A stretch of DNA of 64,000 nt from Nannochloris sp. 'desiccata' (taxonomy: Eukaryota > Chlorophyta > Trebouxiophyceae > Chlorellales > Chlorellaceae): NCBI GenBank assembly GCA_019044685.2, contig JAGTXX020000003.1, positions 1 through 64,000 on the forward strand, written 5' to 3'. The position numbers and the translations under genes were made by a program. Each line of letters starts with the position of its first letter. Within the stretch, counting starts at the first letter, position 1. Of the stretch, positions 1 to 51,900 are shown in pieces. The notes beneath the pieces were generated by a model, which worked only from the letters and a program-made list of their open reading frames with translations, had not been told where the DNA came from and did no database searches.

Positions 1-251
1 CCTAAGCCCTAAACCCTAAACCCTAAACCCTAAACCCTAACCCTAAACCCTAAACCCTAAACCCTAAACCCTAAACCCTAAACCCTAAACCCCTAACCCT
101 AAAACCTAAAAACCCTAAAAACCCCTAACCCTTAAAAAACCCTAAAAACCCTAACCCTAAATAAGACCTTAAAAAACCCTAAATAAGAATTAAAAAAACC
201 CTAAATAAGACCCTAAAATAAAATAAGACCCCTAAAAAAACCCTAAATAAG
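1..251. repeat. Telomere, CCCTAAA repeats, decaying inward
   Basis: Near-perfect CCCTAAA units fill about the first 100 bases. They then degrade into variants with extra A or C and a CCCTAAATAAGA-like form up to about base 250. The C-rich strand reads 5' to 3' into the window, so base 1 is at or close to a left chromosome end. The G-strand unit TTTAGGG is the Arabidopsis type found in plants and many green algae. Confidence 0.97.
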
Positions 252-10006: not shown

Positions 10007-10011
10007 ATCTA

Positions 10012-10790: not shown

Positions 10791-11129
10791 ACTTGAACTT
10801 GAACTTGAACTTGTTACATAAGTGATCTCTCATGATTTCATATCATTTTATCACTCAGGGCTCTAGCAGTACAACCTCTCAAATTCTGCTACGGAGGTAT
10901 GCAAGTTTCTTTGGCTTCATCAAGGGGGAAAAGGGCAGAGAAAATGAAGCTAAAAAGAGGAAGAAACCGCTCCGTTAATTGAGAACCCCTAGAAGCTACC
11001 CACCACACAGCTTCCACATCACTAAATCATCTATAAAATTAGTCAAAACAAAACAAATAGACCACAATGGTCTAGTAATCACCCTTGAATTATGGGATCA
11101 AATAGAAAAAGGATTTGATGAAAACGATA

Positions 11130-16217: not shown

Positions 16218-16392
16218 TAAATCCGTAAAATTATACGTATATTATGTAGGGTACAGCGGGCTTGTTGTTTTAAATGATTTTAAATTTTTTGCAAAATTGA
16301 TGATCTAATGACAAATTGGCAACCTGAATTCGGAAACCCAAGCTATTGGCAGATGATTGGCAGTTAATTGGCAGTTACAATAAAAAATCCTC

Positions 16393-27180: not shown

Positions 27181-27501
27181 CGTTAAATATGCCTTCCTCT
27201 TTTCAAAGATATGCTACTTTTCATGTTTCTGTTTTGGAAAAAAGCGCCTAACACTGATGCTAGGTTCCCCTTGCGTGCTGCAACTATTAAGCCGCCGCCG
27301 TTGTATTCCCGACACTTTTTCATTAGAGGGGCCCTTTTATTTTTAGTCTCTAGATGATTTATTATATTTACAATTGTAATATACATGCATATAACTGTTG
27401 TCTGCCATACAATAGTGCAGTTTAACTCCAGAAACAGTTAAATATGCCCTTGAAAACATCTATCTCTTATGAATTTTGCAGTTCATGAAATAACAAACTC
27501 T
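27181..27501. other. 3' flank of the PKS gene
   Basis: These 321 bases lie between the Gypsy fragment and the PKS stop codon. On the PKS strand a TGTAA, the usual chlorophyte polyadenylation signal, occurs at about 27372-27368, roughly 130 bases after the stop. Nothing else is recognised. Confidence 0.4.
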
Positions 27502-27920
27502 TCAAAATTGTTCTACTTTGGCGATCCAAACGCCCTCATCGGGGTCCCAATGAACAAAAGTAGCACCCATACGGGAGCAAGCTTGCAGCAAAACTCCTTT
27601 AAATGCCATGATTGCACCTTTACTTGCCTTGGTTCTAGGGAAGATGCGATTAAATGTCAGCAGAGCAGACTGGTTGAGGCCATCGCCAGGCGGTGGTGTT
27701 TTCATTTTGGTACCACTGTAGAGTGTGATCGAGCCTTTTTCAATTTGCACAATCTCGTCCAAGTTTGCATTGGATAGATCAACAGGATACAAGAATGCTA
27801 TCTCTCCATAACCCTGGCGTCCAATAACAAACCGGGATACTTGTATCAACTCTTGCTCGGACATGTGCTGCAGACGTCTTATACTAGGAACTGTGAAGTA
27901 CCCTGGTTTGGTTAGTTTGG
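27502..27920 (-). other. Nup98-type autoproteolytic domain at the PKS C-terminus
   Basis: After ACP6b and a linker of about 80 residues, the same uninterrupted exon encodes a domain of about 135 residues with the signature of the nucleoporin Nup98 C-terminal (peptidase S59) domain: LTKPGYFTVPS, then FVIGRQGYGEIAFL, VDLSNANLDEIVQIE, PPPGDGLNQSA, and the end FVHWDPDEGVWIAKVEQF. In Nup98 this domain cuts itself between Phe and Ser of HFS and then anchors the protein at the pore. Here the frame stops (TGA) directly after the Phe. The Ser nucleophile is therefore absent and Gln replaces the His, so the domain should fold like the post-cleavage form and not cleave. It occupies the place where a thioesterase would be expected. 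Confidence 0.85.
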
Positions 27921-30900
27921 GTGCCAGTGGTGAAATAATTGCTGTAGCAGATGGTAATAAGCGCTTATTTGGATGAGAAATAGGAGCATTCTTATTGCTG
28001 TGCATAATCTCCTCAATGGGTTCCATTCTTGCTTGTTCCACTTCTGCAATTGCCACCGCCACCTCTGCGGCTTCTTGTAAAGATAGAGCGCTTTGCTTCA
28101 AATCATAAGCGATATAAGCCGCCATTGATTCGATTGTAGGGTAGTCAATTGCGAAAGATACAGGAATTTCTATGTCGTCAAAAGCTGCAGCAAGCTCCTT
28201 TTGCAGCTGCGGGACTCCGAGAGAATCCAGCCCTGCGCTCATCAGCAGCACATCGATAGCTGGATCTGAGCCCAGAACCTTGGCTGTACATCTAGCAACG
28301 ATTTCAGTTATCTCTTGTAAGGAAAGCGCTGGTTTTATTGGCAGCACCATCTCAGGAGGAACCGTTGCAGCAACTTCTGGTGCACATGTCATGATTTTCT
28401 CACTAAGCAACCCAATAACGGAGGCTGCTGTGGGGTAATCAAACACCAAAGTAGATGGCAATGACACTCCAGAAGACTTTTCTAAGATTGTAAGCACTTC
28501 CACAGATCCAATAGAATCAAGCCCAGCTGCAAGTAGTGGCTCATCCAGCCCAATTTCCTTGCCAAGCACGTTGGTAAGAGCATCCACGACCAAACCTTCC
28601 AAATCAATGATAGGAGCTGTCTCCTGCTGCTTATTTCGTGTAGCTATAAAGGCAGTAGCAGGTTGTTTTGCAGGATTTTGAGAGACTGGAGCTACTACCA
28701 TGTCTTGATAGAATGCCATGTTGCTTCTGTTACCACCAAGAAGCAATTTATTCCATTGAATACCAGCAGCAATGAAGCTGCTGCTGCCCCGACCATTTCT
28801 TGTCAACAGTCCGTGAATAATTGAGAGACCAATTTCAGGCGGTAGAACTGAAATTCCGACAGCGTTAAGCTTTGATTTAACTTGACTGTTGGCTGCCATG
28901 CCAACACTACCCCAAGCTCCCCAAGCAATATTGATGGATTGAATGCCTTGAGCAGCAGATTTCATAACTACACCCTCTAAATCGCTATTTGCCATTGCAT
29001 AGGGCAGCTGACCTGCGCTTCCAAGCGAGGATGCAATGCTACCATACATTATATGGTGAGAAATAGGCATTGACGCCGCCGTTTTGGTGAGTAATAATCG
29101 TGCTGGGTTTGTTTTGGAAGCAGCAGAACTCCTTACATTTCCCAACGTCTGAGCACGAATTGCAGCATCTTGGAGTACTCCAGAGGCATGATGTATCACA
29201 AGAAGAGCCTTAGTATCACAGAAACTATTGATATCATCGTTGGAAGCTCCATCAAGCTTCATATTTGTCACCATTACGTTTGATGCAGGTGTCGAAGCTG
29301 CTGCAAGACTGGCCATGGTGCCGAGCCCAGCACTGCGTCCAAGCAGGAGTAATTCAGTAGGCGAAAATGTAGAAAGTACCAGAGATCTAGCGACCAACGT
29401 TCCTAATGCGCCTAATCCTCCAGTTATGGCTGCTCTGAAGGGAGAAAATGGAGCTTGAAGCAAACTGTGAGAGGTGGTTGGTGGTGCTGCACTTGGCCGC
29501 TTCAATAAGATAGGGCGCTGAAGTGCGCCTGGTGAGCCATGCTGGCGTGTGCCCCAAGCATCTGAGAGAGCGAGCATATTATACGAACCTTCAGTGTACT
29601 CAATGTTAGCTTGCGGCATTTCCAAGGATAAAACCTTTGACCAGGCATGAGCAACTCCTTTTACGTGTTGTTTGGCTACGCTGATGCCAATAGTACGAGC
29701 ATTAACATGAGCAGCCTGTAGGAAAATGACAGTAAATGTATTAAGCACACGATGCGATGAATACAAAGTTATTTATTTGAATAATGGAAACTAATGTATC
29801 TTACCTGCTGAGCAATGCTCAGTAACTTGGCACTAAGCTCAACGTTGCTGCGGTTTCCGTCGGTGCCAAGGTGAATGCGATGTTCATCTACTAACAATAC
29901 AGTAGACATGTTACCTTCTGGTTTTGCAGCGTGAGCAATGTTATCTGAAGTTTGCCACTGAATGTCGTATGTGCACTCGGTAGAAAAGTCGATATCCTCA
30001 TTTCCACTAATGGTGCCGCCACGAGAGATCGGGCGTGCTACTAGGTCCACGAGCTGATGTTGTGGAAATGCATTGAACCAGCTAATATTGCTTAAACCTT
30101 CATTCAAAGAAATAGTGCGAGCAATAGCCCAGCTAATACTGCTTGAACTTGTTTTATTACTGAATAAAAGGCCTCCAACTGCAGTGGGAACCTTGGTTTC
30201 TTGCAATGGCTCGCCAACACGTGGCACAGGTGCCAGATGGATGCAAGCATCAAGGCTGGCAGGATTAACAAAGAAATTAAGTTGTGGTGCAGAACTTTGT
30301 GCTAACTCAGCAAAGTTATTTCCTTCGCTGGGTAAAGCTGCTTGACTCTTGAACAACACGTGCAACAGAGAACAGCGGCTGTTCGAGGAGGGCGAACCTG
30401 GTGCCAAATTTTCAAATACTGTCGATTCTTTGAAGAGTTTTTTATATAAACCATGAATATAAATTGCACCACGGGATCCACCAATATTGATTCCACCTCC
30501 ATTATGTAAGCTAGCTTTTAAATTACTGTTATCAAGTTCTTTATTCAGGGGCAAAGCTGAATGAATTGTAGCTGCCGTAATCGCTCCCATCGAATTTGAG
30601 TCTACTTGTTCGATACCAGCAGTAGCCACAGCGTGCATTATTTCAAACATACTTGATGCTGGCATAATTGCACGTCCAAATACTTGATGATCCTGTAAAA
30701 ACGCATGCGATCGTACAGAAACTTCAATTATTTTACCGGCTGCGGCAGCGCCTCCAATGAAGGGATGCAGCATTGGCAGTGGCCAGCAACGGGTGCGCTC
30801 CATAATCAGTGGCTTTCCTACCCTTTTAATATAAATAACATCCATTTTATCACTATTGGCCAATGAAAAGATTGCATGGGCGTTTACACCACTCATTCCA

Positions 30901-33900
30901 AAAGAGCTTGTGCCAGCATAAGTATCATAGCTGTGGTGCATTGTTGGTGCTGCTTGTCTTGGAACATGAGCAGCGTTGTTCACTAATGATGGCTGCACGT
31001 AAGGATTTAAAGCTCTCAAATTGACTATAGGTGCAGAAATTCGCTGTTGAAGGTAATGTAATGCAAGCAAACTTCCAGTCATGCCTGCTGTGCCTTCAGT
31101 ATGACCAAAACATGTTTTGCTAGCTCCAATAACGAGTGAAAGATTTCTCTGTTTGCCACCCAGAGCTGTGGTTAAAGCTCCAATTTCAATAGGATCTCCA
31201 AGTGGAGTACCAGTTCCATGTAAAGAGACAGCTACCAAGTCTGCAGCTTGGGTGTGTTGCACACGTAAAGCTTGGCGGATGAGAGCAGATTGAGAGGGTC
31301 CATTAGGAGCTGTTAACCCACTACTAGTGCCGTTTTGCTGCACAGCGCTTCCTTTGATCAATACAGAGATGTCAGGGTGAGTAGAGGAAGCTACCAAACC
31401 GATGCAAAGCCCTTCACTACGCCCATATCCATCAGAACTAGCATCTAAAGCCTTGCATCTGCCTACAATCGACAAGGCTTGCAGCAAGCAAATTCTCGAG
31501 GTAGTTTGAGGAATAAGCATTACATTGGCTCCTCCAGCGAGTGCAAACTCGCTTTCGTGACGCAAAATACCTTGATAGGCAAGATGCAGAGCTACTAAAC
31601 TGCTTGAGCAAGCTGTGTCAGTAGATATACAAGGTCCCTGCCATCCAAATGTGAAGCTCAGCCTGCCAACCATGAAGGAAAGGCCGTGCCCAGTGACGGA
31701 CGAAGCTGAGGAATTTGCAAGGCCAGCAGGGCCTAGAATTCCATCTAAATACTCTGTGTACATGCACCCAACATATACTCCAGTTTGGGGTGACACTCCA
31801 TTAGTAACACTAGAACTTGCTTCAAATGTTTTCTCTAATAGCAAGCGCGTTTGTGGATCCATACCCATAGATTCACTGCAGAAAAATGATTTTGATGTAT
31901 TTATTAGTAAGATTAAGTGTCGGACCTTTCGCATAGGCAAAAATGAAAATAAGAGTTACTAACCTTGGTGATAACCTTAGCAATGTTGAATCAAATAGAT
32001 CAATGTTTTCAAGCCAGCCTCCAAATCGGACGTACATCTTGCCACTTTCAGCTGCAGGGTTGTAGTGAGCATCAATATCCCATCGAGAAGAAGGGACAAC
32101 TTGCTGCACGTCTGTGCACGAATTGAGCTGTGCAGCAGCTTGCATTGGAAACGATGAACCGTTAGGATACATAGACATCATAGAAATAAATCCAGTTGTT
32201 GATGCTGCAGTGGAAGAGTGCTCAACAATGACATTGGCAGCAAACGAGGAGTAGGTGCTACCACCACCACCACCACCACTTCCAAAGCTTTCTTCCAGAT
32301 ATTTTGCCATCGATAAAGATGTAGGGTAATCATACGGGATTGTAGCAGGCAATGAAACTCCGAAATCTGCTTCTAATGCGGAACGCAGCTCAGTTGCGCT
32401 CATTGAATCCATTCCTGCTTGCATGAATGGTTCTTCTACTGAAACAGATTTTCCAAGGACCTTGCCCACAATGCTCTGCACGCTGGAAACAAAGTCTTCA
32501 GTGCTCTGTGAGTGCGTATTAGCTGCTTGGTATGCCTCTTCAACTTCAGACATATTGTTTACTATAGAAGAAATGAATTCTGCAAGCTTGGAAACAGTAG
32601 GGTAGTCAAATGTCACCGTTGCCGGCAAATCAATATTGAACTTTTGAATAAGAGCGTTGCGGAGCTGGACTGCCCCAATCGAATCCAACCCAACAGCCAT
32701 AAAGGTAACATTATCGTATTCAATTGAATGTCCAATCGATTCCTCAACAATCAAACGCACGCTTCCAATGACGTGTTTAATATCTTTCTTCACGTGCTGT
32801 CTTACAGCGGCCGGCTTCTCCGGCAACAATTTTGAATAGATTCCGAGCTCTTTTTGAGAAGGGCGAAGAATTTTGTTCCAGTCCGTAACAAGTACAGCAC
32901 CAAGAATTGGTTGATTTATAAACTCAAACGCTCTTTGCAGGGCACCTAGTCCAATAGCTGGAGTAATGAGGACCATGCCGAGGCGTTCGAGGCGGCGGGC
33001 AACACTCTCCTGCATTGAAGCCATGCCGCTGCCTGCCCATGGTCCCCATTGAAAGCTAGTGCATGAGACACCTTGATTATTAACCATACTGGTAAAGCCA
33101 TCAAGTGCGCCGTTTGCTGCTGCATAGCTGGCTTGACCACCATTTCCAAGCATTGCCGCCGCGGAGCTAAAGTTGACCCATGCTTCAATTGGAGCTGAAT
33201 TGGTCATTTCTCTTGCTACAGACTGTGCACTATATATTTTCGGAGCTAATGCAAAGCGCAAAAAGTTTGGGTTTTGGTTGGATATTGACGCATCTTTGAC
33301 GCTGCCACTTGCATGATAGATCGTTGTGGGGGCCGACCTTATTCCTAGATTTTCAAAAGTAAAATCGTCGCGCTGGGCCACGTCGCACTGCATAGCTTGC
33401 AATTCAGAGGTACTATTCGTATCGTTTTCTGAATTAGGCTTCCATTGAGATGCACTGCGGCCAAGCAAGATAATTTTCATCTGGCCGTCGTCTTGCTGTT
33501 GCATTTGCAGCCACCCAGCCACCAGCTGACCAAGAGCACCCATACCTCCTGTAATGATGGCCATCCGCGTCCTTGTAGAAGGTAATTGGCGAGTTTTGCG
33601 GTGAATATAACTCTGCTTGGTAAGAATTGGAGTTTTCAAGTAACCACGTTCGACCAGCGGCATATTTTGAGCAGAATGTAAAATTGAATTACGTTGGACC
33701 CAACAACAACCAAAGCAGCCGCCAATAATGCCTTCACCAAGCTCTGCATCGCCTACTTTAAGCATGGCATGCAATGCATGACTTAATGACTTTGAAATTA
33801 AGCTAGGAAGAGTGATACGGCATTGCTCAATGTTACGTGATTGAAGGATGCTCAAAGCTGCGCTCAAAGAATCTAATTCAGAACTCTTCGCAATTTCTGC

Positions 33901-36900
33901 TTTGCCGCTGCTTTGACCTTGACTTTCAAATTCGCAAAGCGTCAATCTGGTCACAGTACTTCCAAAAATTGGCATCTCCACTAAATAAGTAGTTTCATAT
34001 ATTAATTCAGCAACGTCATCGGCATTAATATTTCTGGCTGCCATCGCCCCAAGAGGTCTCGATTCAAGCTCTTCGACGACCCAGCAGCTGCTGCTGCCTC
34101 GAGTAGAAGCCAGCATGAGCTTTGCACCCATGACTCCGGCTTGGGTAACCCATACTCGTGGCAGTGCTGCTGCTTCACGATTCAAACTAAAAGCACGCAG
34201 CTTGGAAGGGACATATAGAATATTTCTCGTACCTTCGTTGAAAGTAGCCGCCAAATGCAATGACGCGTCCATGCTGGCTGATACTTGCGTAACTTTGCTG
34301 CAAGCATCCACAGAACCAATTGATTCACGTGTGGAATTGATAAAAGTTTTGGTATTTGCTAGAAGAACGCTTGCTACAGCAGAGCACGAGATCTCATTTT
34401 CTTGAAAAGATCTCTGTACGACCGCCTGGTTTCCAATTGTGGCATTGCAATGCGTCGAAACTTGAACATTGTTCTGAGAAGAGACACTAATTAATGAATG
34501 GCCAAGAGCGCAAACAATTTTGCTGCTTTGTCCAACAGCCAAAATGAGAGCTGATGGGATAGATACGTCTACCAAGCAGACTGAATGTCCATTGCAGAAG
34601 GTAGAAGCAGCCGCTTGGAGCGTATCCAAGAGAGCAGCTCCAGGCAAAACAGACCTGCCATTAACGGAATGCTGCCATAGATACGCACTCTTAGCATGAT
34701 AATACTCTACTTCAAATTGCGCTGATGATCCCGCAGTGGCTAGAACACTAGCAATAAATGGGTGGGGAGCAGGGATGTGCCACAGGCGCCTTTTGCGAAC
34801 TAAAACAACCTTGCTGTGGTGTTTCTGTTGCTGACCCTCCTCTGCAGCTTCTTGAGCATCTGATCTTTGAAGTACTGCATGCGCATTCGTACCTTGGAAA
34901 GCAAACGCACTTATTCCAATAGCTCCTTCAGATATATATGCACCTTCTTGCCTTGCAGGCACAAAATTGAGCTTGCTCTCAGCCAAAACATTTTCCACAT
35001 AAACATTCAACGTCCTGAGATGCATGGTTGGTTGCTGAGTGGAATATTGAAACTGTGCTACTACGCTTGCCAAACCCAAGAGCCCAGCTGCAGTTTCACC
35101 ATGGCCACTCTTAGATTTTGTGGTGCCCAATGTAATTATGCTAGAGCTTGAACCGCGCAGTACAGAGCACAGCGCACCAATTTCAATGGGGTCACCAAGT
35201 GCTGTGCCAGTGCCGTGCATTTCAATTCCAGATATATTTGAAGTCAAAACACCACTAGATTCAGCTGCATGAGCTATGACAGATTGTTGGCTGGGTCCAT
35301 TTGGCGCTGTCAAGGTACTAGAACGACCATCTTGATTGCTTGCAACACCAGAAACAATTGCCAAAGGAGAGGCTGCTTGAATTTGCAGTGCGACTACAAC
35401 GGATGCTTCCGAACGTACATATCCATTAGCTGACACATCTAGAGTTTTGCAACGTCCATCAATAGCCATCATTCCTGCTGCCATAAACATGAAAGAGGTC
35501 TCCCAGTTCATAGGCAAGTTTATTCCACATGCAAGACCAGAAGAACAGTTCGTTGTCATGGCGCTGTGCACGTATCCAAGCCCCACCAGACTACTAGAGC
35601 ATGCTGTATCAATAGCTACACATGGCCCAGAGAAACCAAACGTATAGCTAAGTCTACCTGCTGCAACACTTAAAGCCTTTCCTGTAGCAACATAACCACC
35701 GCCAGCACCGCTGCGCTTACCAGTGGTTGAAGGATAGTACGCAGGTTCACCCAGCTTTGCAATACCCACTGCTACAGCAGTATTAGTAGAGACAAACGAA
35801 AATTCTGTAGCATCTTCAAGTAGCACACGTTGCTGTGGGTCCATGAACATAGCTTCGGGACCAGAGACTGCAAATGCTTCGGTATCAAAATACGCTCCCC
35901 AGTTTTGAACAAATCCTCCAAAACGCCCTGCAACAAATATTTTAGACGTATTTTGGTGATGATCTGCATCCCATCTATCTAGAGGTACAATACCTACTGC
36001 GTCCAGAGCAGCTGCTGAAGCAACATCAGGGGCTCTCTTCTTGATTCCAACAATGCCGACTCGACGATGCTGCCTTGTTTGATAGGAAGAAAGCCCAGTA
36101 TTCTTTGTTGCTTCTATTGAGTCTTCTTCAGCATTTGGTATTATTTGAGACATAATAAAGTTGGATATTGCATCAATACTGGGGTAATCAAAGACCAAGG
36201 TTCCTGGGAGAGAGTACCCGAGCCTTCTACTCAAGTCATTCCGAAGCTCTACTGCACCAAGAGAATCAAGACCTGCTGCTACAAGAGGATCATGCAGACC
36301 TACATAAGATCCAATGATATCCTGCACGGAGAGAGAGATCTCTTCAACAATGGCGTCAGCCGCGTTAAGCTTGCTGGCACTGTGTTTAGATGTAGGAATT
36401 TGGGATGCGGCCGCTCCTGTTCCGGCTTCAGCTTGGCCTTCTTCATCCTGCGAAGGAACTAGTTCTTCGAAAATATGCTCTGAACGGTTAATACGGTCCC
36501 AATAAAACACAGAAGCAACAATGCTTTTGATCTGGAGGTTGTTTTGAGCTTGGCCAAGGATCAAGTAGCCCAGTGCTCCAACACCGTGGTCGGGTTTGAT
36601 AGCGCCAAAACCAAGACGTTTCATGCGATCTAAGCCAACAGCGGCAGCCATTCCAGCTTCTGCCCAAGCGCCCCAATTAACAGTCATAGAAGGGATTCCC
36701 TGTTAAGATCGAATGAAATAAAGGTTAAAAGTTTGAGGAGAAGAATACTTTTTTTTAAGTGAGCGCTTCTGCTGTTCTTTCAAAAATAAACTAAATCTAA
36801 ATTTTCGATCTTACCATTTTGTGCATTGAAGCTGAAATGCAGTCTACCGCTGTATTTGATGCAGCATAATTAGCTTGACCTCCACTTCCAAGCGCGGCAG

Positions 36901-39900
36901 CAACGCTACTAAATACATTGCATGCTTGAATAGGGAGAAATTGAGTCTCTTTTGAAATTGACTTTAATCCATCTACTTTCGGCCCCATGGTGGCTCGGAT
37001 GCTATAAATACTTTGTTGCAGAATAGTCGCGTCTCTCAATACACCGCCTGCATGTAGAATGCCTTCCAGAGGGCGCTCTGTCAGAAGTTGTCGCTGCAAA
37101 TCTGCAGTGCAAGAGGCGTCAGCCATAACATTACGCACTGCTGCATTCATTGACAGCAACCCATCTTTATTACGGCAGTCTCCAAAAGATGGGGCATGTC
37201 CTGAACGTCCAATCAATATGCATTCTTGAGCTCCTATATTTATCAGGTGCTTGGCTGCTAAGAGACCCAGAGCTCCCGTTCCTCCGACGATTGCCCAGCT
37301 GCCAGATGTAGAAGAAAGACGTGAGCGATATGTCCTGGAAGTTACAATTTTACCGACATGTCTAGCTGATGAAAGATGGCGCAGAGCTTGAGCAGCATCG
37401 CCAAACCTGTAGTCCACCAGTGGAGGAGGAGAAATTTTGCCGGCGAGGAGCAATGTTGAAATTCGCACCAAGCCTTTATTAATTACGCTTGGAGGCATAA
37501 AATCAACAGCAACGGTGAAGAAACAAACGTCGGGACGCTCTTGTGCAACGCGTGCAGCACTCCAGATATCACGTTTGGCTACTTCTACAAAGCTGCCGCC
37601 CTGGTTTAAAGTAGCCAGAGACGCTGCAACCATGCCAGGCGATGTTAACGAATTTAGCACCACGTCAGCTCCACTTTGCCATGGTTTTATTTCAAAAGAC
37701 TCTGACGCAAATGCTATTGAGCGACTGTCTAGTGCAGCAGAAATTCCTTGTCCAGCAGTTGAGCTGCTTCGGAGCATTGTTCGCTTCGTAACACCACCTG
37801 CGGTGCCGATAACCTTAGCACCAACTAATTGAGAGATTTGAATCGCAGCCAACCCTAAACCACCAGTGGCTGCGTGAATTAATAGTAAATTTCCACGAGT
37901 TGTATTTGCAGCTCCATTCAAGCATACAAGGGCTGTTAAGAAAACAGTAGGCAAAGAGGCGGCCCCCTCGAATGACACGCCGCCAGGCATGCTTGTCATC
38001 ATAGATTCATTAACTACTACTCTGGACCCTAAAGAACCTGCGGCTTGACCATATACAGCTTGTCCAACCTTGAGCGTTGCGCCACTGCCTGTTTGTACGA
38101 CAAGACCAGCACAATCGCCGCCTGGAGGGCCAGGATCTCCTGGGTACATGCCGAGGACATTGAGCACATCGCGGAAATTTAGGCCTACGGCAAACACATT
38201 GACAGCAATGTCATGTGGTTTTAAGGCGCATTCCTTGATTGAAACCAGCTTCAAGTTTGCTAAACTTCCTCGGGGCTCTGGATAAAGCTGCACATGATTC
38301 TCAAGTGGAGCTATTACAGCTGCAATTTCCCTCAGTAAAGAAGGCTTGACGACGTACCCTCCACAAATCTGTTCCCCAAATGCATCGTTTACAAGTGTTG
38401 TCTCTTGTTTTACTCCTCGAGGAAGCAGATTACTTATTGTAGCATGGCTCCAAGTAAGATCAGGGGCCTCAATTGCAGCAACTTTCACTAGGGAACCCAT
38501 TATGTCCTTGTTCAGAGAAGCGCTAGCGCTGGTTGAAGCAGCTCCCAAGTGTGATACTATACTGGGTTGCAGCAATGCTATATTGGCAGCTGCAAACTCG
38601 GTGGCACTTTTAAGTTCAGCTGGATAGACTGATACAGCATTATCAAGCCTCCATTCTGAGTTGCGTCTGAAAGACAAATCCTCATTCTCCAGATTGTTGC
38701 TGCTGATAGTGCTTTGTTGAGATGCTTGCCAATCGATTTTGTACAACATGTCCTGCGATTCTTTAGCAACTTTCGCTTGACCGTCATTCGGTGTTTTCCT
38801 CTTGACCGGCTTGGATTCAACTCCGTTGCAGCCCATTGCAACATCTCCATCAGCTCGAATAAGCTGGTGATTACAAGAGAACCCGCTGTGAACTTGTGAC
38901 AAAGGAACAGGATGACCAGCTAAACCAGCAAGTGGCCAAGGTGATGAAGACGAGTTTCTATCAAGTCTATTGGCAACTGAAGCTTGAACTTCCACAGGAA
39001 CTAGTGACATCTTTGGTGTGACTAAAGCTCCAAGATGTAAAGCTGCATCAGCAAGTGCAGGGTGTGCGTGGAAACTTGCTTCATTTTCAACTTTGTCACA
39101 TGCTAAAAAGGAGATCAGTTTTGCACTGAAATCTTCTTTTTCAAAGGTCTGTGAGGCAAACAACGACTTTATTGAAGCTTTATTTCCTTTTAAAAGCTTT
39201 GTTTTTAAATTAGCTGTGCCAAAGTGTGCTGCAATGTGCCTGTTCGAAGGAAAAGACGTAATTTCAAGCAGATTCTCGGCAGGGTTGAAAGTGCAAGAGA
39301 CCTTTGAGCTTGTTCCTGCCAATATCAGTGGCGAGAGGATGCTCACACCTAGTAGTACTGGTGTGTACGTTTCATTAAATCTGAAAGTATAGCATGTCGC
39401 ATGCAGTATTTCCAGAAAAGCTGTAGCAGGCATGAGAATCTTACCATGAACAACGTGATGCATCGTAAATCCTGCCATGGCACTATCAACACAGCAATCA
39501 AGTTCTATGATGCTATTGCCATTTGTTTTTTGAGTGAGAACTCTCCTAAGTAATGGATGGGCTTCAGGGACAGGCCAGCAGAACTCATGATTCCAGTACA
39601 GGTAAGAGTCTGTACTTTTAACCATCGAAATATTGATATTGTAAGAGCTAAACAAGCCATGAGCATTGATTCCACTCATACCAAACGAGCTTGTTCCTAC
39701 AAATAATTTCAAACTTAATTTCGCTCACTATGTAACAATCAAAAATAAATGAAGTACTAGTAATATCACTTACCGGCCAGTCCAGAGTCTTGGAAAACAG
39801 AAGCAGCAGCGTGTTGCCTAGGAAGCATTGCTGCTGCAGCCTGATCTAAAGAGCTTGCAACATAGGGATTTATATTGCGTAAGTTCACAATACTGGGGCA

Positions 39901-42900
39901 TATTTGTGACTTCAGGGCATTTATAGCAAGCAACGCTCCTGTGAGCCCTGCTGCACCTTCTGTATGGCCAAAACAAGATTTGACTGAAGCAACCACCAAG
40001 CCTTCCCCACGTTGATCTCTTCCTACTGCTTTCAGTTCTAAAGCTTGACACAACGCCCCAATTTCAATTGGATCACCGAGGGAAGTACCTGTACCATGCA
40101 CAGCTACCATATTTACGGCAGTAGGAGCAATTTCAGCAGCCGCAATTGCATCCACCACAAGCTCACGCTGAGCAGGGCCACTTGGTGCAGTCAATCCACT
40201 GCTTCTGCCAGAAGTATTGACGCTTGTAGAAGCAAGGTACGCAAGAACAGCATTTTCAATGTGCATGCTGCGTGCTTGGCCAAGCATTACCACGGCGAAG
40301 CCTTCTCCTCGTCCATATCCGTCAGCGCTAGCATCAAAAGATTTGCAGCGACCTACCGGAGAGAGAGCTTGCAGAGCACAGATTTTGATTGTGGTGTTAG
40401 AAGAGAGATGAGCATTAACACCTCCTACAGCTGCTGTTTTACACTCATTAGCCATCATAGATAAGCGACCAACATGGGCAGCTACCAAGCTACTGGAGCA
40501 TGCTGTATCCGTCGGCACACACGGTCCTCTCCACCCGAAACTGTAAGCCACACGGCCAGCCAAAAAGGGGAATGTGTTACCTGTGATTGCAGGAGCTGTT
40601 TCTTGAGAAACTCCGAGCTGTGGGAGCATCTCCATATATTCATTAGACCACATGCATCCTACAAACACACCAACCGCCTTACTTGTTTCGTTTTTGACGG
40701 CTAGAGCATGCGCTAGGCTGTCATGATGAGCTTCTCGAACGTGCGCGAGCAACAAACGAGCATGGGGATCCATCATCATGGCTTCATTTTTAGTTACTCG
40801 AAAGATTTCACAGTCAAAGTTGACCTGTGCAGACATAGGAAGCACAGAAGCAAACCTGCAATACGAGGTATTGGCAGTGCCTGCTTCTACTGCATACTTG
40901 GAATCAATGTCCCACTTTGAAATGGGGATTGTTGATATGGTGTCTTTTCCGTTTAGCACAGTCTCCATAAAGCTTCCATGTTGGTTTTGCACAGATGGGA
41001 AACTTGATGCAATGCCAGTTACCACCACCTGCATGTCAAATGCAGTTTCATGCCGCGGCGACAACTCGTGCCAAAAGGCCCCGTGCGAGGTTATCAGAGC
41101 ACCGCTCTGCCGCAACCGTCTTAAAACTTCAACAGCTAATAATTCAATGGTGGGAAAATCAAACACAGCCGTAACGGGGAAGTCTTCGAGGCGGAAATAT
41201 TCCTGGACCGACTTTTGAAATGTTACCAACGTAATAGAGTCAAGGCCACCTTCAGATAAAGGTGTTGTGTTACTTTCCAATCCCAAACCAAATGAATCTT
41301 TCAAAATTGCATGTAGCTTAAATTCAACCTCTTCAAAAGAGATCGCAGCTTGTCCAGAAGAAGAAGGAAGATACTTTTCTGCTTCGCCGTTCCATGCAGA
41401 ATCTGGTGCAGCCACCAGGAGGGTTGTGAGATGTGTGGCAAGATCAATAATACTAGGATAATCAAAGAGAACCGTCGAAGCCATTTTTTCTAATTCGAAA
41501 GTGGACACTATGGCATTACTCAGTTCGACCATACCAATTGAATCCAGACCTGCCTCGAAGAAAGGTGTGTCGAGCGAGATGCTTTGGTTTTCATCAGAGA
41601 TAATTCCACGGACGAGTCCGAGGATATTATCAGCTACAAATTCCTTGCTAATGCTACGCAATTGCCTTGCATCAGCCTTGGTACCGTCATCTGGTCCAAC
41701 TAGCGTACTTTCTCTTGCCGACTTGGCAGCTTGCTCTTTGTCACCAAACAGTACCTGGCGATATTCTTTGAATTGCTTCAAAAATACAGTCCAATCAAAA
41801 GGATTCGCCACAACTACAGGAGCTGTTAAAAAACATAAAATATACTGCATTGCTTGCAAGCCAGCTTGAGGAGTGACAGAGCCGTATCCTTGAACTTGTA
41901 ATCGTTTCAACAAGCTAGGGTGAGAGGCGGCCATGCCTGAGCCGGACCAGGCACCCCACTGAATACTTGCACAGCGGCTCCTCCCTTGCTCCTCCCAGAT
42001 AGAGGCTGCAGCATCTAAAACAGCATTAGCAGCGGCGTAATTTGCTTGCCCTTTTGTTCCAAGTAGAGAAGTGATGCTACTAAAGAGGGCCACGTTCGCA
42101 ACTCTCGTGCAGCTCGAGTTTGATTCCAATTGCTCAAGAGCTCCTACTTTCGGCGCAAATACGTTGCGTGCACCACTCAGAAGCTGGTTTTGAATGCGTC
42201 CATCAACAAGAGTGCCACTGGTGTGGTAAATCGATTCAATAGGCTGATTTGAGAATAATGCTGCCATGTCTTCACGACAAGCAACGTTGGCTTGAGCAAT
42301 AGTAATTGTACTATTTTGTGACGCAGCAGAGATGTCACTAATAAAAGAGAATTTGCCATGATGCACTGTACGTCCAGCAAGCAATAATTCTTGTGGCTCC
42401 TTCTCAAAGGCAGACCATGCTGAAACTAAACTTCCAAGTCCTCCCAAAGCGCCAGTCACCAGAGTAATACCTTGATGGCTCTTTGCAGCATTTGCTGGCC
42501 AAAGAGGTTTCGGCTCAGACTGAGGTTTAAGCGTTAGAGTATACGCAATGCTCGAATGAATTTCAACAACAGGGAAGTCAGTAGGTATATCTTCAGCGAC
42601 GCAAGCCAATTTGCCAACAACGATTTGATGCCGAGTGCTGAGAATCCCTTCGCTTGTAGCTACTTTGAGAGCTCCGTGAGCTGCATGAGACTGCAGGGAG
42701 GTATTTAAATTCCATTTCGAGAATTTTGCAGCATCTTGAGACTTCAATATTTGTAATATAGCTCCAATGCCCAGTGGTTGAGTTCCCAGCATCAAAAAGA
42801 TCCCCGAAGACGACTTTTCTTCTTGTGCACTTGCAAAAGAACATTCTTCTCCCCTTCTTGGTTCGACAATCAAAGGAAGAGAACTTTCTAAATTCAAGCA

Positions 42901-45900
42901 ATACAGCATTGTAATATTATTAGCAGATGCAGTAGAAGATAGGACAGTACCCACGGATGCTTGCCTTGCTTCGAGTCCTGTGGTTGACGAAGTCACCGTG
43001 GCTCCAGAAACAATACGAGCATCTGTGAAAGATTTGAGAGCAATAGTTGATTCTCTCAAAAGTCTAAACGCAACTGAAGTCCATTTATCTTTCACATTAG
43101 ACATCTTTGCATCCCTTGTGAGATTAGAACCTGCTGCAGCGACGGATACCGGCAGCAGTGTGGTCCTGGCTTGAATGGCGCTCAAGTGCAAAGTTGCATC
43201 GCTTTCAGCAGGCTCAATGCTCCCCGTAAACGTAAAAGCGCTGTTTACGGTATGTGTAGACAAGGTAGCAACGCTGAGAGAAGGCGATGTCACACCTAAT
43301 GCTCTAGTATTCAGTAAAACAGAGCGAACATTAGCTCTTATACCGTTGGTAGCAAGAGAGGCAGCCCAAGCGGAACAATATGCAACTCTGCTAGAAGCAT
43401 GCCTATTCGATCTCCCTGATACTAGGACCACCGCTCCAATATCAAGTGCAACCGTCAATTGTAAGGATTTCACACCAATATTGCAGGGAGAAATAAATGC
43501 CGTATCGCAAACTAAAGGAGAGCTTTCTTCTCGCACCAAATACTTTGCAGCAATATCAATGCAGCTCAGGATAGCTGTTCCAGGTAGAATTGCGAGTCCT
43601 GCTACTGTATGATCTGTAAGGTATGCGCAGCTAGGATTGTTTGCATTAAGCTCCATAATAGCTTCTGCGCCATGGTGCCTGCTTGTGAAGTTTCTGATAA
43701 ACCCAGTTTGCAGAGGAGCTGGCCAAAAGCTTTGAAGTTTCCATATCGTTGTAATAACGGCAGGTTCAGGGCATATAGAAGGTCCTTGAACAATCATATG
43801 GGCATTTACACCACTCATTCCGAAGGAACTTGTGCCTGAAACTCTGGTCGCAGCTGCATTGCCAGCACCGCTTGGCCCGGCGGAAAGCTGGCGAGGCATA
43901 AACTTAAGCTGCGGAGAAAACTCCACTGCTGAAGCAACATAAGGATTCATATTGCGCAAACACATAATAGGAGCTAACAAACCATTGATAGCAAAATTGA
44001 GGGCAAATAGAAGCCCAGTAGCGCCAGCAGCGCCTTCTGTATGACCATTGCAGCTCTTGACTGAGGTCAACGCGAGTGGCAACTGTCGGGGATCATTGAA
44101 CACAGCTTGAATAGCCCCTACCTCAATAGGATCCCCTAAAGAAGTACCTGTACCATGTACTGCAATATTTTCAACGGAACCAGGGCTCAAGCCACAATAT
44201 CTTTGAGACTTTGCCAGCAGCACTTGTTGACTCGGTCCATGCGGCGAGGTCAAACTGCTGCTGCGCCCATCCTGGTTCACAGCACCGCCAAGAATAACTC
44301 CAATAGCATCTCCGGTGCTGTTACTACTACTTAAATAAATGGAAGCAAATCCTTCTCCACGACCATACCCATCTGCGCTTGCTTCAAAAGATTTGCAACG
44401 ACCCACCGGGGACAACGCTTGAAGTTGACAAATTCCAACAGTTGTTTCATGCCAAAGCAATGCATTAATTCCAGATGCAATAGCAGCGAAAGATTCTCCC
44501 CCAATAATACCACAGTGTGCAGCATGTGTTGCAACTAAACTACTTGAACATGCAGTATCGATGCCAACACATGGTCCTTGAAGCCCATAAGAGTAAGCGA
44601 CTCGGCCGCTCTGGTACGGGGCTCCGTTGCCGGTCATCATTGGCCCTGTGTGATTTATTTGCAAGCTCACGCGCATATAATCCATGTAGTCTGTGAACAT
44701 GCATCCAACATAAGTCCCTGTGGTTGCTGGATCCAGAGATTGAGCGCCATTTAAAGCATCACCTGTGATTTGCAATAATATTCTTGCTTGAGGATCCAGT
44801 GCCGTAGATTCCGCTCGTCCCATTCGGAATACAGCACTATCAAACTGATCAATATTGGAGATGAAAGCGGCAAATCTAGCATATGATAAACTAATTTTGC
44901 TAATTGAAGGATCATAGCAATGATCTACGTCCCAGCGCTGCATAGGTACCTCTGATTGAGCTGTGCCGCTCTTTTCGGCAAACTGCCAAAATTCAGAAAT
45001 ATTTTCTGACTGAGGGTAGAGGCAGCCAGTTCCAAGAATGTAAGTATTACAGCTTAATGAAATGCCATTGCTAATTCCTCCATAAACAGAGTCGTAGATC
45101 TCTAATGCCCCTTCATTGCTGCCACCGACTGTGCTGCTAGCGCTAGCTTTTTTGGAAATATATCCAGCGACTGCTGCTACTGTAGGGTAGTCAAACGCTG
45201 TTGTTGCAGGCAGTTGGACATTAAATTGCTCGGTTAACATATTTCTTAACTCGACAGAAGCCAAGGAATCTAGTCCAGCCTGAAAGAGAAACGAAATAAA
45301 TATTCAATAAATATTCAAGCGAGAAAGTTTCTGTTCAGTTCTGAAAGATAATTCTTGCTGTGTCACTTACCTCCATAAAGGGTTGATCTTCTTGAATATC
45401 ATCAGTTCCTAAAACTAGCGAAGCAATAGAAAGCACCCGCTGCTTAATACCATTTGCTGTTTCATTTCTTGCTGTAGCTTGTTGCTCCTTTTTGCGACTG
45501 AGGGACTTTTGGGAAGTACCACTGATGTATTTTGATAGAGCTTCAATGGTGGGGTAGTCAAACACCACAGTTGCTGGCAGCTGTAGATTAAATGAAGCTG
45601 TCAAGCTATTGCGCAGCTCAACAGCTCCTAATGAGTCTAAACCAGAGTCCATTAATGGTGCATTTACCTCGATAGATTCTCCAGTAACTAAAGCGACCAG
45701 GGCTGAAATCAATTCAACAGTGCCTTCTTCTTGCATCATACCACGATTGATCTCGTGTTGATGGTTTTTAGCTTCATAATTTTTTAGAATAATTGGTTTT
45801 GTTTCAAGTAGCTCGCTATTGGCAAATAGAGGTTGCTGGCGGCGATGACCACGCAACAGTTCTTTCCAATTGAATATTCCAGCCATCCATGTGGGGGTTT

Positions 45901-48900
45901 CTTTACGATACAGAAGCTTTGACACGATTAAAAGACCTGCATGGGGTTGGAGTGCCCCCAATCCGCTGCGTTCCAGCCTCGCCAATAGATTGCTGCCACC
46001 ACCACCAGCTGCTGCCATGCCAGACTGTGCCCAAGGTCCCCAACCCACGCTTTGGGCAGGGATCCCTGCTTTGTAGACCTCCTGAACGATTGCATCTAAT
46101 GTAGAATTAGCTGCAGCATAATTCGCTTGCCCGGGATTGCCTAAAGGAGCACTGACGCTGGAGAATAGTTGACACGCCGCCAATGGATGGCACTGTGCTA
46201 GTCTTAATAAGGACGCTGTACCATTAACTTTCGGTGCAAAGACCTTAAAAGCTCCAGATACGTTTTGATTTGACAAAACACCGTCTGATAAAACTCCAGC
46301 AGCATGAATAATTGTGTCTAATGGAGAATCCATTGCCAAATTTTGGCTATCCTCTAAAGCAGCAATGTCGCAGAGCTCCATGCGCACACAGGCAGTACCA
46401 CGCATCAATGCAGCAGCAGAGGCGCTGCCTTTTGCAACTTTGCCTGTCCTACCTAGCAAAACAAGTGACGAATCTGGTTGAAAAGTCATCCAAGCTGCTG
46501 CGAGGAGACCAATGCCGCTCAATCCACCTGAGATAAGAGTGCTGCTTTGACTTGACTTTGACCACACAGCTGCAGAGATTTGTGCTTCTATTTGATATGT
46601 GATTTCGAGCCTCGGCGCATATTTAACTCCAGCATGTGCCCTGTTGCTGAAAAATTTAATCTTCCAAGCAGGCGCTGCTTCACTTGCTGCAACGGCACAC
46701 AAGCCATGCAGCGAACGGTGTGCCGAGACTTCAATAGAATTTGCACTACCGCTCGTTTTAATTTGCAGCGCACCTTGCAGAAGGCTGCAGCCAGCAGCGA
46801 ATGAATTTAGAGTAGGTTTGGCATGCTTCCATTCAAATTCCACACCTTCATAAGTGAGTAGATTAATATTTACGGGTTCTCTAGTGGAAACTTCACAATC
46901 GTCTGCTTCTTCTGTTGTCAAGTAAATCAAGGGACTTTCCTTGATGGCGGCAGGAAGGGAAGCATTGCTGCCGGCAGCAGCAGTCAGGAATTTAGAATGC
47001 AAAGTACTCAGTGAAGTTGCCTTATCAATAACGAAGGTAGCACTGCGGTCTCCATTTGACAGCACAGCCACGTTAGCCATACTCGCCGTTGAAGACGTTT
47101 TTCTCGTTTTTGCTATTCCAATAGCGCGTAGGCAGCCTAGAAGTACAGGCACACGTGGGCGAGACCCGTGTTTAAGATCAAAAAGAGCTCCTAAATGCGT
47201 TGATGCATCTGCAACAGCTGGGTGGATGCTATAATTTTCCAGTGCTAAATGATTGCCAGCTGCCTCGAGGTGAGCGACGCTTAATTTTCCTGCCAACACT
47301 GCAGATGACGATGCTGTCCTGCCAATTAAGTTTCGGTTGCTTTTACGTTTTTTAGTCATCGAACGCGGTACTGTTGTAATTTTGTGCTCCGAAGCTATAT
47401 TCTGGGTTGTTGCATGGACCTGTTTTCCGAATTTCGAGACACTTTCCAGCTCCACATTGCCTTGGCTTCTATTTACCTTGGATCTAAGTACAGTGCTTGT
47501 ATTTAGTAACAACAGTGGTGCATGCAAAGCAGTATTTATAAGCGATGCGTCTGCATGGCCTAAAAGACTCACCGTGCTGGCATTTATTGCTTCAAACATA
47601 GCTGTTCCAGGTAAAATTGATCGCCCATTGACCTGATGTTGCCATAGATATGCCAGACTTGGGTGTTGAAGATCGCTCTCAACAATTGCCAGAGGTGCCG
47701 ATTGATTCCCAACACGCGCCCGTACAGAGAAACCACGAGTAAGTGGAATAAACCATTGCGCTGTTCGACGCCAGATTACTGCTTTTGCTTCGATATTTAT
47801 ATTGATACCAGAGCAATGCTCAACTTCACTTGACTGTCCACCTACTATAAGATGTGCATTGCTGCCTTGGAAAGCAAATCCACTGATGCCAATATTTGTT
47901 ACTGCGTGCTGTGCACTAGGCGTTCTAGGCATCCATGCAAGTGGGATCGTGCATTGATCCAACGCTCCAACAATGTACGGATTCACTTCGCTTAAATGAA
48001 GCGTGCCCAGGGTAGCTAGGCATCCAATAGAAGCAAGGGCTCGCTGTAATCCCACCCCCCCTGCAGCAGGCTCAGCATGCCCCATGTGACTTTTGGCAGC
48101 ACTAAACTCGAGATGATTAGTGCGCTTGTCAGCGCCCAAAACAGCAGCAATTGCTCCTACTTCGATCGGGTCCCCAAGCGCAGTGCCAGTGCCATGCATT
48201 TCTACAGCAGAAATCTCAGCAGGGCTCAAATCAGCATTATGCTGTGCCAAAGTCAGCACTTCTTGCTGACTAGGCCCATTGGGAGCAGTTAAAGAACTCG
48301 ATCGACCATCTTGATTCACTGCAGATCCAGCTATAACTGCCAAGGGATTTGTACTAAACCGCCTCATCGAAATTGTGATGCAGGCTTCCCCGCGAACATA
48401 TCCATCTGCGCTGGCATCCAGAGTCTTGCAACGACCATCAGGGGCGAGCATAGATGCTGCTGTGAGCATACCAATAGTTGCAGGATCCAATGTCAGCAGG
48501 GCAGCAGTAACCAAGCCTACTCGGCAGCGCCCTTCATCAATCATTTGTCTTCCCAAGTGCACTGCGCTTAAGTAAGAGCTACATGCAGTATCTACACTAA
48601 CAGAAGGTCCTTTTAACCCATAACAAAAGCTAATGCGGCCTGAAGCTACACTAAAGCACCTTCCTGTTGCTTTATATGCTTCTCCCGCTCCAACAAGGTG
48701 GCGGTCGGCTTGAATCGAATAATCCCAAAAAGAAAGTGCCGCAAGGACTCCAACCTGTGCCTGGTGCTCTGAGGGCAAAGGCAATACTTCATACGCACCC
48801 TCCAACATAATGCGTTGCTGCGGATCTATAAGAACGGCCTCAGATCTAGCAATACTGAATGCTTGAGTATCAAACATTTGAATATTATCTAAGAATCGAG

Positions 48901-51900
48901 CAAAGAGGGAGCCAGGCCCATGGGGAATATGCGGCGCAGAAAGGCATGTATCCCATCTTTCAAGTGGAACAGCACGGCATGTATCAACCAATAGATTAGT
49001 TATAGCAAGAACATCCGGTGCAGGCGCAGTAAGACGATGGGCAATGCGGTCAATTGAAATTGGAGCTGCAGTGCGGATATGCCGCTGGGCAGTCAACGTA
49101 TTTACTACTGGTGAATCGAACAACGCACTACTTGATAAAGCATTGAAGGCTCCAAAAACATATTTAGAAATTGAGGTTACGGTAGGGTAATCAAATACCA
49201 AGGTGCTGGGCAAAGCTAAATGGAAGTGGCGAGAAATGTCATTACGAAGCTCCACAGCACCCAAAGAATTGAGGCCCATGGCTAGCAGAGGAGCCTCTGC
49301 TTCTATTGCTGATTCGTCAATACCTGTGCACTGAGTGATCATGGGGATGATATCTGTAACTATATCTTCCAATGACCGCATGCTGGTGGACTTGTTTTCG
49401 CCGGCAGCAGCGGGCCGGGTGTTCTCGAGCTTACCAAAAATAAATTTAGCAATATCAGTGGCTGTAGGGTAGTCAAATACCAGAGTGCTTGGAAGTTGAA
49501 CTCCAAACGTAGACTGAATTTTATTCTTCAGTTTAACAGCGCCTGTAAGGAGGAAAGATAAAAAGAAATTAAGTTTAGTTTATATTGACAGGGTTGTGCA
49601 CACAAAAATTGAACTCAACCACTGCATTCACTACCTAAAGAATCAACTCCTGCCTGAATTAACGGCATATTGGCATCTATACAAGTTCCCTGGGTAGACT
49701 TAATGCATTGTAAGATTTTCTCGAGGACTTGAAGAGGAAGGAAAGCTGGCTTTTTAGCTGTAGCCCCGCCAGTACCTTCAAGACGTGGTCCGGTTGCCTC
49801 AGTTTCAGGCAGATATTTTGTATAAATGCTAGCTGCCTTATTTCTAGAAAGTTTCATAAATGTATTCCAATTAAAAGGAATAGCAGCAAGCACGGATGCA
49901 GGACTCGATTGTTGGCTGCTAATCAACGTTGATATTACCATCAAGCCAGATGACGGAGAAACCATGCCAACGCCAGAACGTTTCATTGCTTGTTGAACAG
50001 CATGGCTGTTTGATACCATGCCAATTTCAGCCCAAGCACCCCATTGAATAGCTGTGCTCCCTATCCCTGTTGTTGTTAAAGAGCTTGCTGCAGCGTCAAG
50101 CACGGCATTTGCTGCTGCATAGGTAGCACTTCCAGCCGGGCCAGTTAACGAAGCAATGGAACTAAATAGGACGATTTGATCCAACGGTTGAATATTGATA
50201 ACTTCCTGCAGGACATTAATATCGCGAGAAATCAATGAGAGAGCTGCGCAAGGACTGAACTGAGCCACTGCAGCCAATAGAGGTTTAAATTTTGAAGAAC
50301 AAAACCCTACCTTTTCAATATTTACCGAACCATATGCTTTAGACGCATAAACAGCTCTCACTCCAGTCATATTGCAACTTAAAATTGATCCATCCCTGAG
50401 AACTCCTCCAGCGTGCATAATTCCCTTGACAGGAGTTGCAGCTGTTGAAGCGTGTACGTCGGCTGAAGAGGCCAAGTCGCACCTGCAAAGAGATGGGAGA
50501 AATGATTGAATAACATTGCTATCGACTGAACTTATAAATTGATAATAAACTTACTGTTGGATTGTAATTGCTCGTTGAGAGATTGAGTCAAACACGCCAT
50601 CTAGAGCAGAGTTGGCGTTGAAGCGACCAGATCGGCATAACAGCATCTGATGTGATGCGCCCTGCTGAGACAACCAATCTGAAGACAGTTGTCCCAGTGC
50701 ACCATTACCTCCACTAATTGCCCATGCCTTTGCAATGGGCGCAGCTAAAGTTGATTTCAGCCCAGCAGCAGGCAGCAGCCGCGGTACGAGCTCCACCCCA
50801 CCAGCGATTTCAATTCCGAAAGCGTCATTTGAAGCAGATGTGTCTGTAAAGCTCCATTTAGGTTCATATTCTACACTAAATAATGCTGAGCCTTTCAGTT
50901 CAGAGCGTTCGTTAACAATACACCGCAGCGCAGCAGCGACAGTGCCAGCTGATCGTCTGTTGCGCCCTGGCACAGGTGTCTTAGTAGACGCAGCACGGCT
51001 TGAAAATGATTTAACATTAATAATGCCTCTTTGGGGATATATTGCGCAGCTGGATTGAAGTAGCGCGAGAGTTTGAGGGAAATCGAGCATCGACGTTGGA
51101 TCGATCAAAGCAGAGTTGAAAAATTCTTGTTTATGAAATTGTCCTGCTGATACTTCAAGACCTTCAAATGTTGGAGATTTTGCACCATTTAGCATAGATG
51201 TATTGTGATGCGCTTGCCAGCTTATTCTATATAAGTCTGTAGGAGTCTTTGAGTTGAGTTCTTGCATGGCTGGTTTTATTTTTTCTGCAGACTTATATTG
51301 CACACCCGCAACATGCAACATTGCTCCAGCTCCGTACTCGGCTCCATTGCATGCATTAATAGTTAGGGTTGTATTTTCTTTCACATCTGCGGAAACGTGC
51401 ATGCTGGAGAAGGCAGCTAAGGTTTTCCCATCAGTCGCAGGGCCGATGTTGCTGAGTTGCACGCAATGCTCTAAATGCCCAGCAATCCTTAGATCTACGC
51501 CTGGTAAAGTCGACGATGTTCCACTTGGCATATTCCACTTAATCGAGTCTTCATAAAGAGAAAATTCGTCGCCTAGCAGAATAGTTGCCAATGTCGTTGA
51601 TGGCGACAATGGTTTACGGAAGTCTCCATATTCATTCGGAATGTGAAAATGGCCTATGCTGCTTGTGAAAAAATCAATTATGGATTTGAACTTAAGATTA
51701 GTGAGCGAAATAGAAATGCTATATAAATCCATGCTAGCCTCCACGCGAGAGGTAGAAGACAGTGCGGTCGGTGCCGGGAGAGTTAAGCCATTAATTAACA
51801 AAGGGCTTTCTTTGGCACCTTGATGCACCATAGCAATACACAGCAAAGCAATCTGCAAATGAAAGGTACGAAATAAAGGAAGTGTTGGTCTGCAGAACTT

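What the first reader, a model, noticed from the sequence alone, without database searches (positions are those of the whole stretch)
27502..28330. A modular PKS fused in frame to a Nup98-type nucleoporin domain
Seen: one uninterrupted exon carries the last KR and two ACPs, a linker of about 80 residues, and a domain with the motifs of the Nup98 C-terminal autoproteolytic domain (GYFTVPS, IGRQGYGEI, LDEIVQIE, PPPGDGLN, WIAKVEQF). It ends at the Phe that precedes the scissile bond. Known: this domain docks Nup98 to the pore scaffold after self-cleavage. Inference: the megasynthase may be tethered at the nuclear pore or nuclear envelope, or the fold may have been reused for chain release or for docking a partner. 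I know of no such fusion described.
Basis: partly seen in the sequence, partly recalled or inferred. Interest (0 to 1): 0.95.

Follow-up and report, generated by a model that had tools for sequence, protein, structure and literature searches.

The report
Giant algal PKS ending in nucleoporin domain
A green alga's giant polyketide-making enzyme ends, where a product-releasing domain would be expected, in a domain borrowed from a nuclear-pore protein that has lost its self-cutting site yet is well conserved in related enzymes, so it probably does a job there that nobody has described.

Summary
The last exon (29715-27502, minus strand) of a six-KS, roughly 9,100-residue, trans-AT-type polyketide synthase (PKS) encodes KR-ACP-ACP-linker and a Nup98-type autoproteolytic domain (APD; PF04096, E 3e-30), in one open frame ending on the Phe equivalent to human Nup98 F863. 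Fifteen database proteins on other contigs carry the same fusion, 57-90% identical, so it is no assembly accident. The 16 fused APDs form one clade (100/99); the host's canonical Nup98-96 lies elsewhere, 37% identical. The self-cleavage motif HFS, in 20 of 20 canonical sequences, is in 0 of 16 fusions; 15 of 16 end within four residues of the Phe position. Twelve residues are invariant in fusions but rare in Nup98. Both other giant PKSs of this genome have a thioesterase after the last carrier domain; this one has the APD. Best reading: a once-only capture of a Nup98 APD, now a non-cleaving, tethered docking module recruiting a partner in trans. A nuclear-pore tether or new release activity is not excluded. 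Four literature searches that could have shown such a fusion found none.

The parts
27502..29715 (-). last coding exon of the giant PKS gene: last KR, ACP, ACP, linker, APD, stop codon TGA
   Evidence: open frame and GT-AG intron 29804-29716; Pfam
27505..27924 (-). Nup98-type autoproteolytic domain (PF04096), lacks HFS, ends on the Phe of the scissile position
27925..28110 (-). variable linker between ACP2 and APD; part of it has model confidence under 50 (model residues 123-146)
28111..28299 (-). second acyl carrier domain (GLDSL), followed in the model by one long helix
28408..28581 (-). first of the two terminal acyl carrier domains (GLDSI)
28909..29427 (-). last ketoreductase domain
   Evidence: exon residues 96-268
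27502..55578 (-). body of the PKS gene: ten coding exons joined in frame give 9,087 residues from 55578 (start codon not located; the first residues may be non-coding, and further 5' exons are likely), with six KS, no AT-type GHSxG and no TE-type GxSxG motif
   Evidence: splice sites inferred from sequence, several junctions had more than one candidate; Pfam domains
27368..27372 (-). TGTAA, the chlorophyte-type poly(A) signal (motif recalled), about 130 bases after the stop; no other TGTAA between the one at 29137 and here

Best explanation
A Nup98 APD was fused once, long ago, behind the terminal carrier domains of a giant trans-AT-type PKS in a green-algal lineage, and it took the place that a thioesterase holds in the sister megasynthases. 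The captured APD lost self-cleavage and was cut back to the residue where Nup98 itself is cut, so its tail-binding groove should always be free. It has since been kept under strong constraint as a tethered docking module that binds a partner protein in trans, most likely the enzyme that takes over or releases the finished chain, or a subcellular anchor. Shown: the fusion, its conservation, one clade, loss of the cleavage motif, the near-constant end point, the altered invariant residues. Inferred: that the linker is flexible, that the groove binds a partner, and what the partner is.
For: Same ACP-APD fusion in 15 further proteins on other contigs. The fused APDs are one side of a branch with support 100/99 and a stem of 1.51 changes per site. 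Among the six full-length exons (window, P0001-P0005) the APD is the most conserved part, mean identity 86.2% against ACP1 83.9, KR 78.1, ACP2 74.2, linker 57.0; in all 15 relatives it is closer to the window than ACP1 is. HFS absent in 16 of 16 fusions, present in 20 of 20 canonical; nine of the 16 end exactly on the Phe position (one of them with Trp there), six more within four residues, and P0011 has 13 more. Twelve fusion-specific invariant residues. The two other giant PKSs have a thioesterase match after the last carrier match in the same open frame, C6:661967/662318 and C6:2358283/2358697; the window gene has none and no GxSxG motif. In Nup98 the APD's second job is docking: it binds the N-terminus of Nup96 or the beta-propeller of Nup88 (PMC11148069, passages read). 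Part of the linker is modelled with confidence under 50.
Against: No partner is identified. The genome search gave one Nup88-family match (30.1 bits, cut-off 24.4) and one Nup96 match, the canonical one, so no duplicated docking partner of those families was found. Newly invariant His, Lys, Glu and Arg could equally make a catalytic or ligand-binding site. No coordinates could be inspected to see whether the new invariants line the groove. The margin of APD over ACP1 in conservation is small (86.2 against 83.9), and the relatives were found with the APD as query, which favours APD conservation.
Confidence: 0.5

Rival explanations
1. Nuclear-pore or nuclear-envelope tether: the APD binds the alga's own Nup96 N-terminus or Nup88 propeller and holds the megasynthase at the pore.
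For: The fold and 28 of 51 canonical-conserved positions are kept; the model's matches include the APDs in the Nup88 complex 7mni and the Nup82 complex 3tkn. The genome has a Nup96 match and a Nup88 match.
Against: 17 of 51 canonical-conserved positions are lost, four of them beyond the Phe, and 12 new invariants have appeared. Identity to green Nup98 averages 36.2%, below that of green Nup98 to an insect Nup98, 39.8%. A 1 MDa enzyme would compete with essential Nup98 for the same sites (inference).
Confidence: 0.2
2. New release or cyclisation domain: the fold of a self-cleaving protease was rebuilt around new invariant residues (exon residues E637, Y642, R714, T718, H721, K732) and frees the chain from the terminal ACP.
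For: It occupies the thioesterase position; no other release domain was seen in the scanned exons; E637, T718, H721, K732 are invariant in 16 of 16 fusions and rare in canonical APDs; the ancestor did acyl-shift chemistry (recalled).
Against: The ancestral catalytic His is gone in 16 of 16 and the Ser is at most a last residue in two; no nucleophile of proven geometry was identified; the APD fold has no described hydrolytic activity on other substrates (recalled). Chain release in trans is a known alternative (recalled).
Confidence: 0.2
3. Structural cap only: the APD stabilises or dimerises the megasynthase end without a specific partner.
For: A folded C-terminal domain after a low-confidence linker.
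Against: Conservation above that of the KR and twelve new invariants exceed what a mere cap needs (inference).
Confidence: 0.08
4. Assembly or gene-model artefact joining a PKS to a stray Nup98 piece.
For: No transcript evidence was available.
Against: Fifteen fused relatives on other contigs at 57-90% identity; open frame with no GTRAG sequence in linker or APD; host Nup98 is 37% identical to it, so it is no recent stray copy.
Confidence: 0.02

Closest known systems
Nup98 C-terminal autoproteolytic domain (Pfam PF04096, peptidase S59)
   Different: No HFS, no Nup96 behind it, no GLFG, follows acyl carrier domains, own clade with 12 new invariant residues
Giant chlorophyte trans-AT type I PKS (Chlorella variabilis 1.2 MDa PKSs, PMC4661987; Chlamydomonas PKS1)
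   Same: Multimodular KS-DH-KR-ACP organisation, no integrated AT found, huge size
   Different: Ends in an APD; the word nucleoporin does not occur in the main text of PMC4661987
The two other giant PKSs of this genome, C6:625-662 kb and C6:2307-2361 kb
   Same: Same genome, same KS and carrier domains
   Different: A thioesterase match (PF00975) follows the last carrier domain; no PF04096 match there
Docking domains of modular PKSs (recalled, not searched)
   Same: Small element at the polypeptide end that would bind a partner
   Different: Known ones are helix pairs or short beta elements, not a nucleoporin fold (recalled)

Membership tests
Nup98 APD (PF04096) | Profile match over curated cut-off | tested here: met
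   101.6 to 107.4 bits against 28.4
Nup98 APD (PF04096) | APD fold | tested here: met
Nup98 APD (PF04096) | Catalytic His-Phe-|Ser motif | tested here: not met
   QF then stop in the window; HFS in 0 of 16 fusions and 20 of 20 canonical
Nup98 APD (PF04096) | Self-cleavage activity | not testable with these tools
   Sequence predicts none, as no residue follows the Phe
Nup98 nucleoporin (whole protein) | FG/GLFG repeats before the APD and Nup96 after it | tested here: not met
   0 GLFG; 32 FG in 9,087 residues against a shuffled mean of 24.6 (range 13-37, 200 shuffles); stop codon after the Phe. The canonical gene with FG repeats and Nup96 is at C4
Nup98 nucleoporin (whole protein) | Binding to Nup96 N-terminus or Nup88, location at the pore | not testable with these tools
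   No interaction or localisation data
Type I modular PKS | Several KS with Cys motif, KR, ACP with phosphopantetheine Ser on one polypeptide | tested here: met
   Six DTACSS and nine GxDS-type motifs in the joined translation; Pfam KS, KR, DH, ER and carrier matches
trans-AT PKS | No integrated acyltransferase | tested here: met
   No AT family in the Pfam scans of the exons from 55580 on, no GHSxG; exons further 5' were not scanned
PKS with integrated thioesterase release | C-terminal TE | tested here: not met
   No PF00975 match on C3 among the 7, no TE in the exon scan, no GxSxG

The most novel reading that the evidence does not exclude
A self-cleaving nucleoporin domain was turned into a new kind of chain-release or cyclisation domain of a megasynthase: the old catalytic His and Ser were discarded and a new invariant set (E637, Y642, R714, T718, H721, K732 of the exon translation) acts on the acyl-ACP in the slot of the thioesterase.
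Probability: 0.2. Interest if true: 0.95.

Novelty: new variant of a known kind. Interest (0 to 1): 0.82.

Why it matters
The products and roles of algal type I PKSs are almost all unknown (PMC4661987, section 5). Here a nuclear-pore domain sits in the release position of one of them and is conserved in 15 further sequence clusters. That gives a single 140-residue domain on which product release, hand-over to a partner and localisation can be tested by removing it. It also shows that the Nup98 APD, otherwise a nucleoporin anchor as far as I know, has been recruited for another job.

Tried and rejected
Assembly or gene-model artefact: rejected. Recent stray copy of the host's Nup98: rejected, 37% identity. 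Search for full-length annotated fusions in the length class of about 4,800-15,200 residues: 10 candidates, none at E 1e-3; this says little about named genomes because giant gene models may be missing or split. Relatives in IMG/VR (19 pattern matches) and GTDB genome contigs (42 pattern matches): none confirmed. A second Nup88 or Nup96 that might serve as private partner: not found (the searches are exon-wise). Published interface residues of the APD with Nup82/Nup88: the passages read gave none and one search found no paper, so the docking groove could not be checked residue by residue. N-terminal piece 55580-54144: no match in Pfam, NCBIfam or PDB sequences.

Cautions on sampling: the 15 relatives were found with the APD as query, so they say nothing on how many related PKSs lack an APD. 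P0031 was left out of the tree and of the site counts because its model lacks part of the domain; it is in the 20. Several relatives are short pieces (P0011 is 406 residues on a contig of 1,850 bases), so their last residues may be set by the contig end. In the alignment, five of the 16 (P0009, P0012-P0015) seem to have one carrier domain, not two. In the tree P0033 and P0015 have long branches and P0011 an unusual composition, and the three non-green canonical rows belong to neither counted group.

Full report
What is there. The window is the first 64 kb of contig C3 of a 21.55 Mb, 18-contig genome. Its own canonical Nup98 is closest, among named records, to Micractinium (72-74%), Chlorella vulgaris (67%), Auxenochlorella (56-63%), Coccomyxa (61%) and Prototheca (61%), so the host is most likely a trebouxiophyte green alga; the genus was not determined. 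On the minus strand a PKS gene runs from upstream of 55.6 kb to 27502. Nine introns with usable splice sites join ten coding exons in frame; several junctions had more than one candidate, and for the second intron I took the acceptor at 51853 over one at 51898 because it continues the domain better. The joined frame from 55578 gives 9,087 residues with one stop, at the end; its first residues may be non-coding, and more 5' coding sequence seems to lie between about 56155 and 55580 (sequence). It has six DTACSS motifs, nine GxDS-type carrier motifs (Pfam counts 12 carrier matches on C3 between 28.1 and 54.0 kb), KRs, DH-like regions and one ER, no AT and no TE motif.

It is not an accident. A search of about 5.8 billion proteins with the APD part of the exon gave 15 proteins at E 1e-3 or better among 217 candidates. 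All 15 carry both a carrier domain and PF04096 in their precomputed Pfam list, at 57-90% identity. They come from four source collections (jgi, lgn, ena, ncbi). Alignment shows the same order: KR where covered, one or two ACPs, variable linker, APD. Of the relatives whose ORF covers the whole exon, P0002 lies on a contig of 32.9 kb and P0005 on one of 12.4 kb. In the window the GTRAG sequences of the exon start at 29136 and 28403, not at the junction, and the only TGTAA after 29137 is at 27372, beyond the stop (that TGTAA is the chlorophyte poly(A) signal is recalled).

It is old and of one clade. The host has PF04096 in two places: this one and C4:502429-502869. The latter lies in a 2,060-residue open frame that also holds Nup96, has 22 FG in the 485 residues before the APD that were held and reads VEHFSKYG. 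The two APDs are 37% identical. In a tree of 35 APDs the 16 fusions are one side of a branch with support 100/99 and length 1.51; the other side holds all 19 canonical ones, 16 green and 3 not. Mean identity is 66.7% within the fusions, 69.0% within green Nup98 and 36.2% between them. The long stem means that the Nup98 donor lineage cannot be told.

It is constrained and has changed its job. Among the six full-length exons the APD is the most conserved segment: 86.2% against 83.9 (ACP1), 78.1 (KR), 74.2 (ACP2), 57.0 (linker); the lead over ACP1 is small there, but in each of the 15 relatives the APD is closer to the window's than ACP1 is, for example 76 against 61% in P0006. Finding them by the APD favours this. 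HFS is in 20 of 20 canonical sequences and 0 of 16 fusions; its His is missing in 16 of 16. Nine of 16 fusions have nothing beyond the Phe position, six have one to four residues and one (P0011) has 13. Of 51 positions conserved in at least 17 of 19 canonical APDs, the fusions keep 28, keep 6 partly and lose 17, four of these beyond the Phe. Twelve positions are invariant in all 16 fusions and found in at most 3 of 19 canonical APDs: R613, R627, E637, A639, F640, Y642, L684, A711, R714, T718, H721, K732 in exon numbering. By cross-strand register (inference from the DSSP line; no coordinates were seen) H721 and K732 may lie on the same face of the last hairpin.

Where it sits. The genome has two more giant PKSs, on C6 at 625-662 kb and 2307-2361 kb. 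In each the last carrier match is followed in the same open frame by a thioesterase match (661967 then 662318; 2358283 then 2358697; the second has a further thioesterase match at 2361361). That these are the gene ends is inferred. The window gene has the APD in that place and no other release domain was seen in the scanned exons. A second model, of ACP2 to the end, has mean pLDDT 79.4 and pTM 0.47: a folded ACP, a long helix, a stretch below pLDDT 50 (model residues 123-146), then the APD, which suggests a flexible tether.

How it most likely works. In Nup98 the APD has two jobs: self-cleavage, and docking to the Nup96 N-terminus or the Nup88 propeller (PMC11148069, passages). The fusion has dropped the first and is trimmed to what the first would have produced, so the second kind of job, docking through a free groove, is the one most easily kept. 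I put 0.5 on a docking module that recruits a partner in trans, 0.2 on a pore or envelope tether, 0.2 on a new release activity, the rest on a structural cap or an artefact. The partner, the location and any activity are not shown.

Against what is known. Ten literature searches were run. The four that could have found a PKS-Nup98 fusion returned none: 23, 24 and 54 held no paper, and 61 listed three papers on other topics, judged from titles and abstract starts. In PMC4661987 (section 5 and passages read) the domain abbreviations of the Figure 2 legend include no nucleoporin and the word does not occur in the main text. 'Nucleoporin' also has no occurrence in the main texts of PMC7073580, PMC6972661 and PMC12633428 (passages only). 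Only open-licence papers are held, so a subscription paper could have been missed. By fold and profile the domain is a Nup98 APD; by the catalytic motif it is not an autoprotease; the whole protein is not a nucleoporin.

Noticed in passing
G000:C3:406-424 kb (+), 434-480 kb (-), C5:357-364 kb, C9:1020 kb: Many phosphopantetheine carrier matches in long open frames without KS matches nearby, probably large NRPS genes, which PMC4661987 calls rare in algae
   Followed up: no
window 55580-54144 (-), with upstream exon(s) near 56155-55620: N-terminal part of the PKS with no Pfam, NCBIfam or PDB-sequence match; by eye it resembles a GNAT-type acyltransferase, as in some loading modules (recalled)
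   Followed up: partly
window 9871-18507 (+) and 11130-16241 (-): A Gypsy-like element (reverse transcriptase at 9871-10821, RNase H/integrase-like at 16384-18507) seems split by a LINE-like element on the other strand, by reading of the translations only
   Followed up: no
window 25233-25940 (+): Second, truncated LINE-like reverse transcriptase fragment beyond the 3' end of the PKS gene, by reading of the translation only
   Followed up: no
window 1-10000: G+C is 49-54% with positive AT skew, against 40-49% G+C in the rest of the window
   Followed up: no
window 51947-51853 (-): Intron with a run of more than 20 T
   Followed up: no
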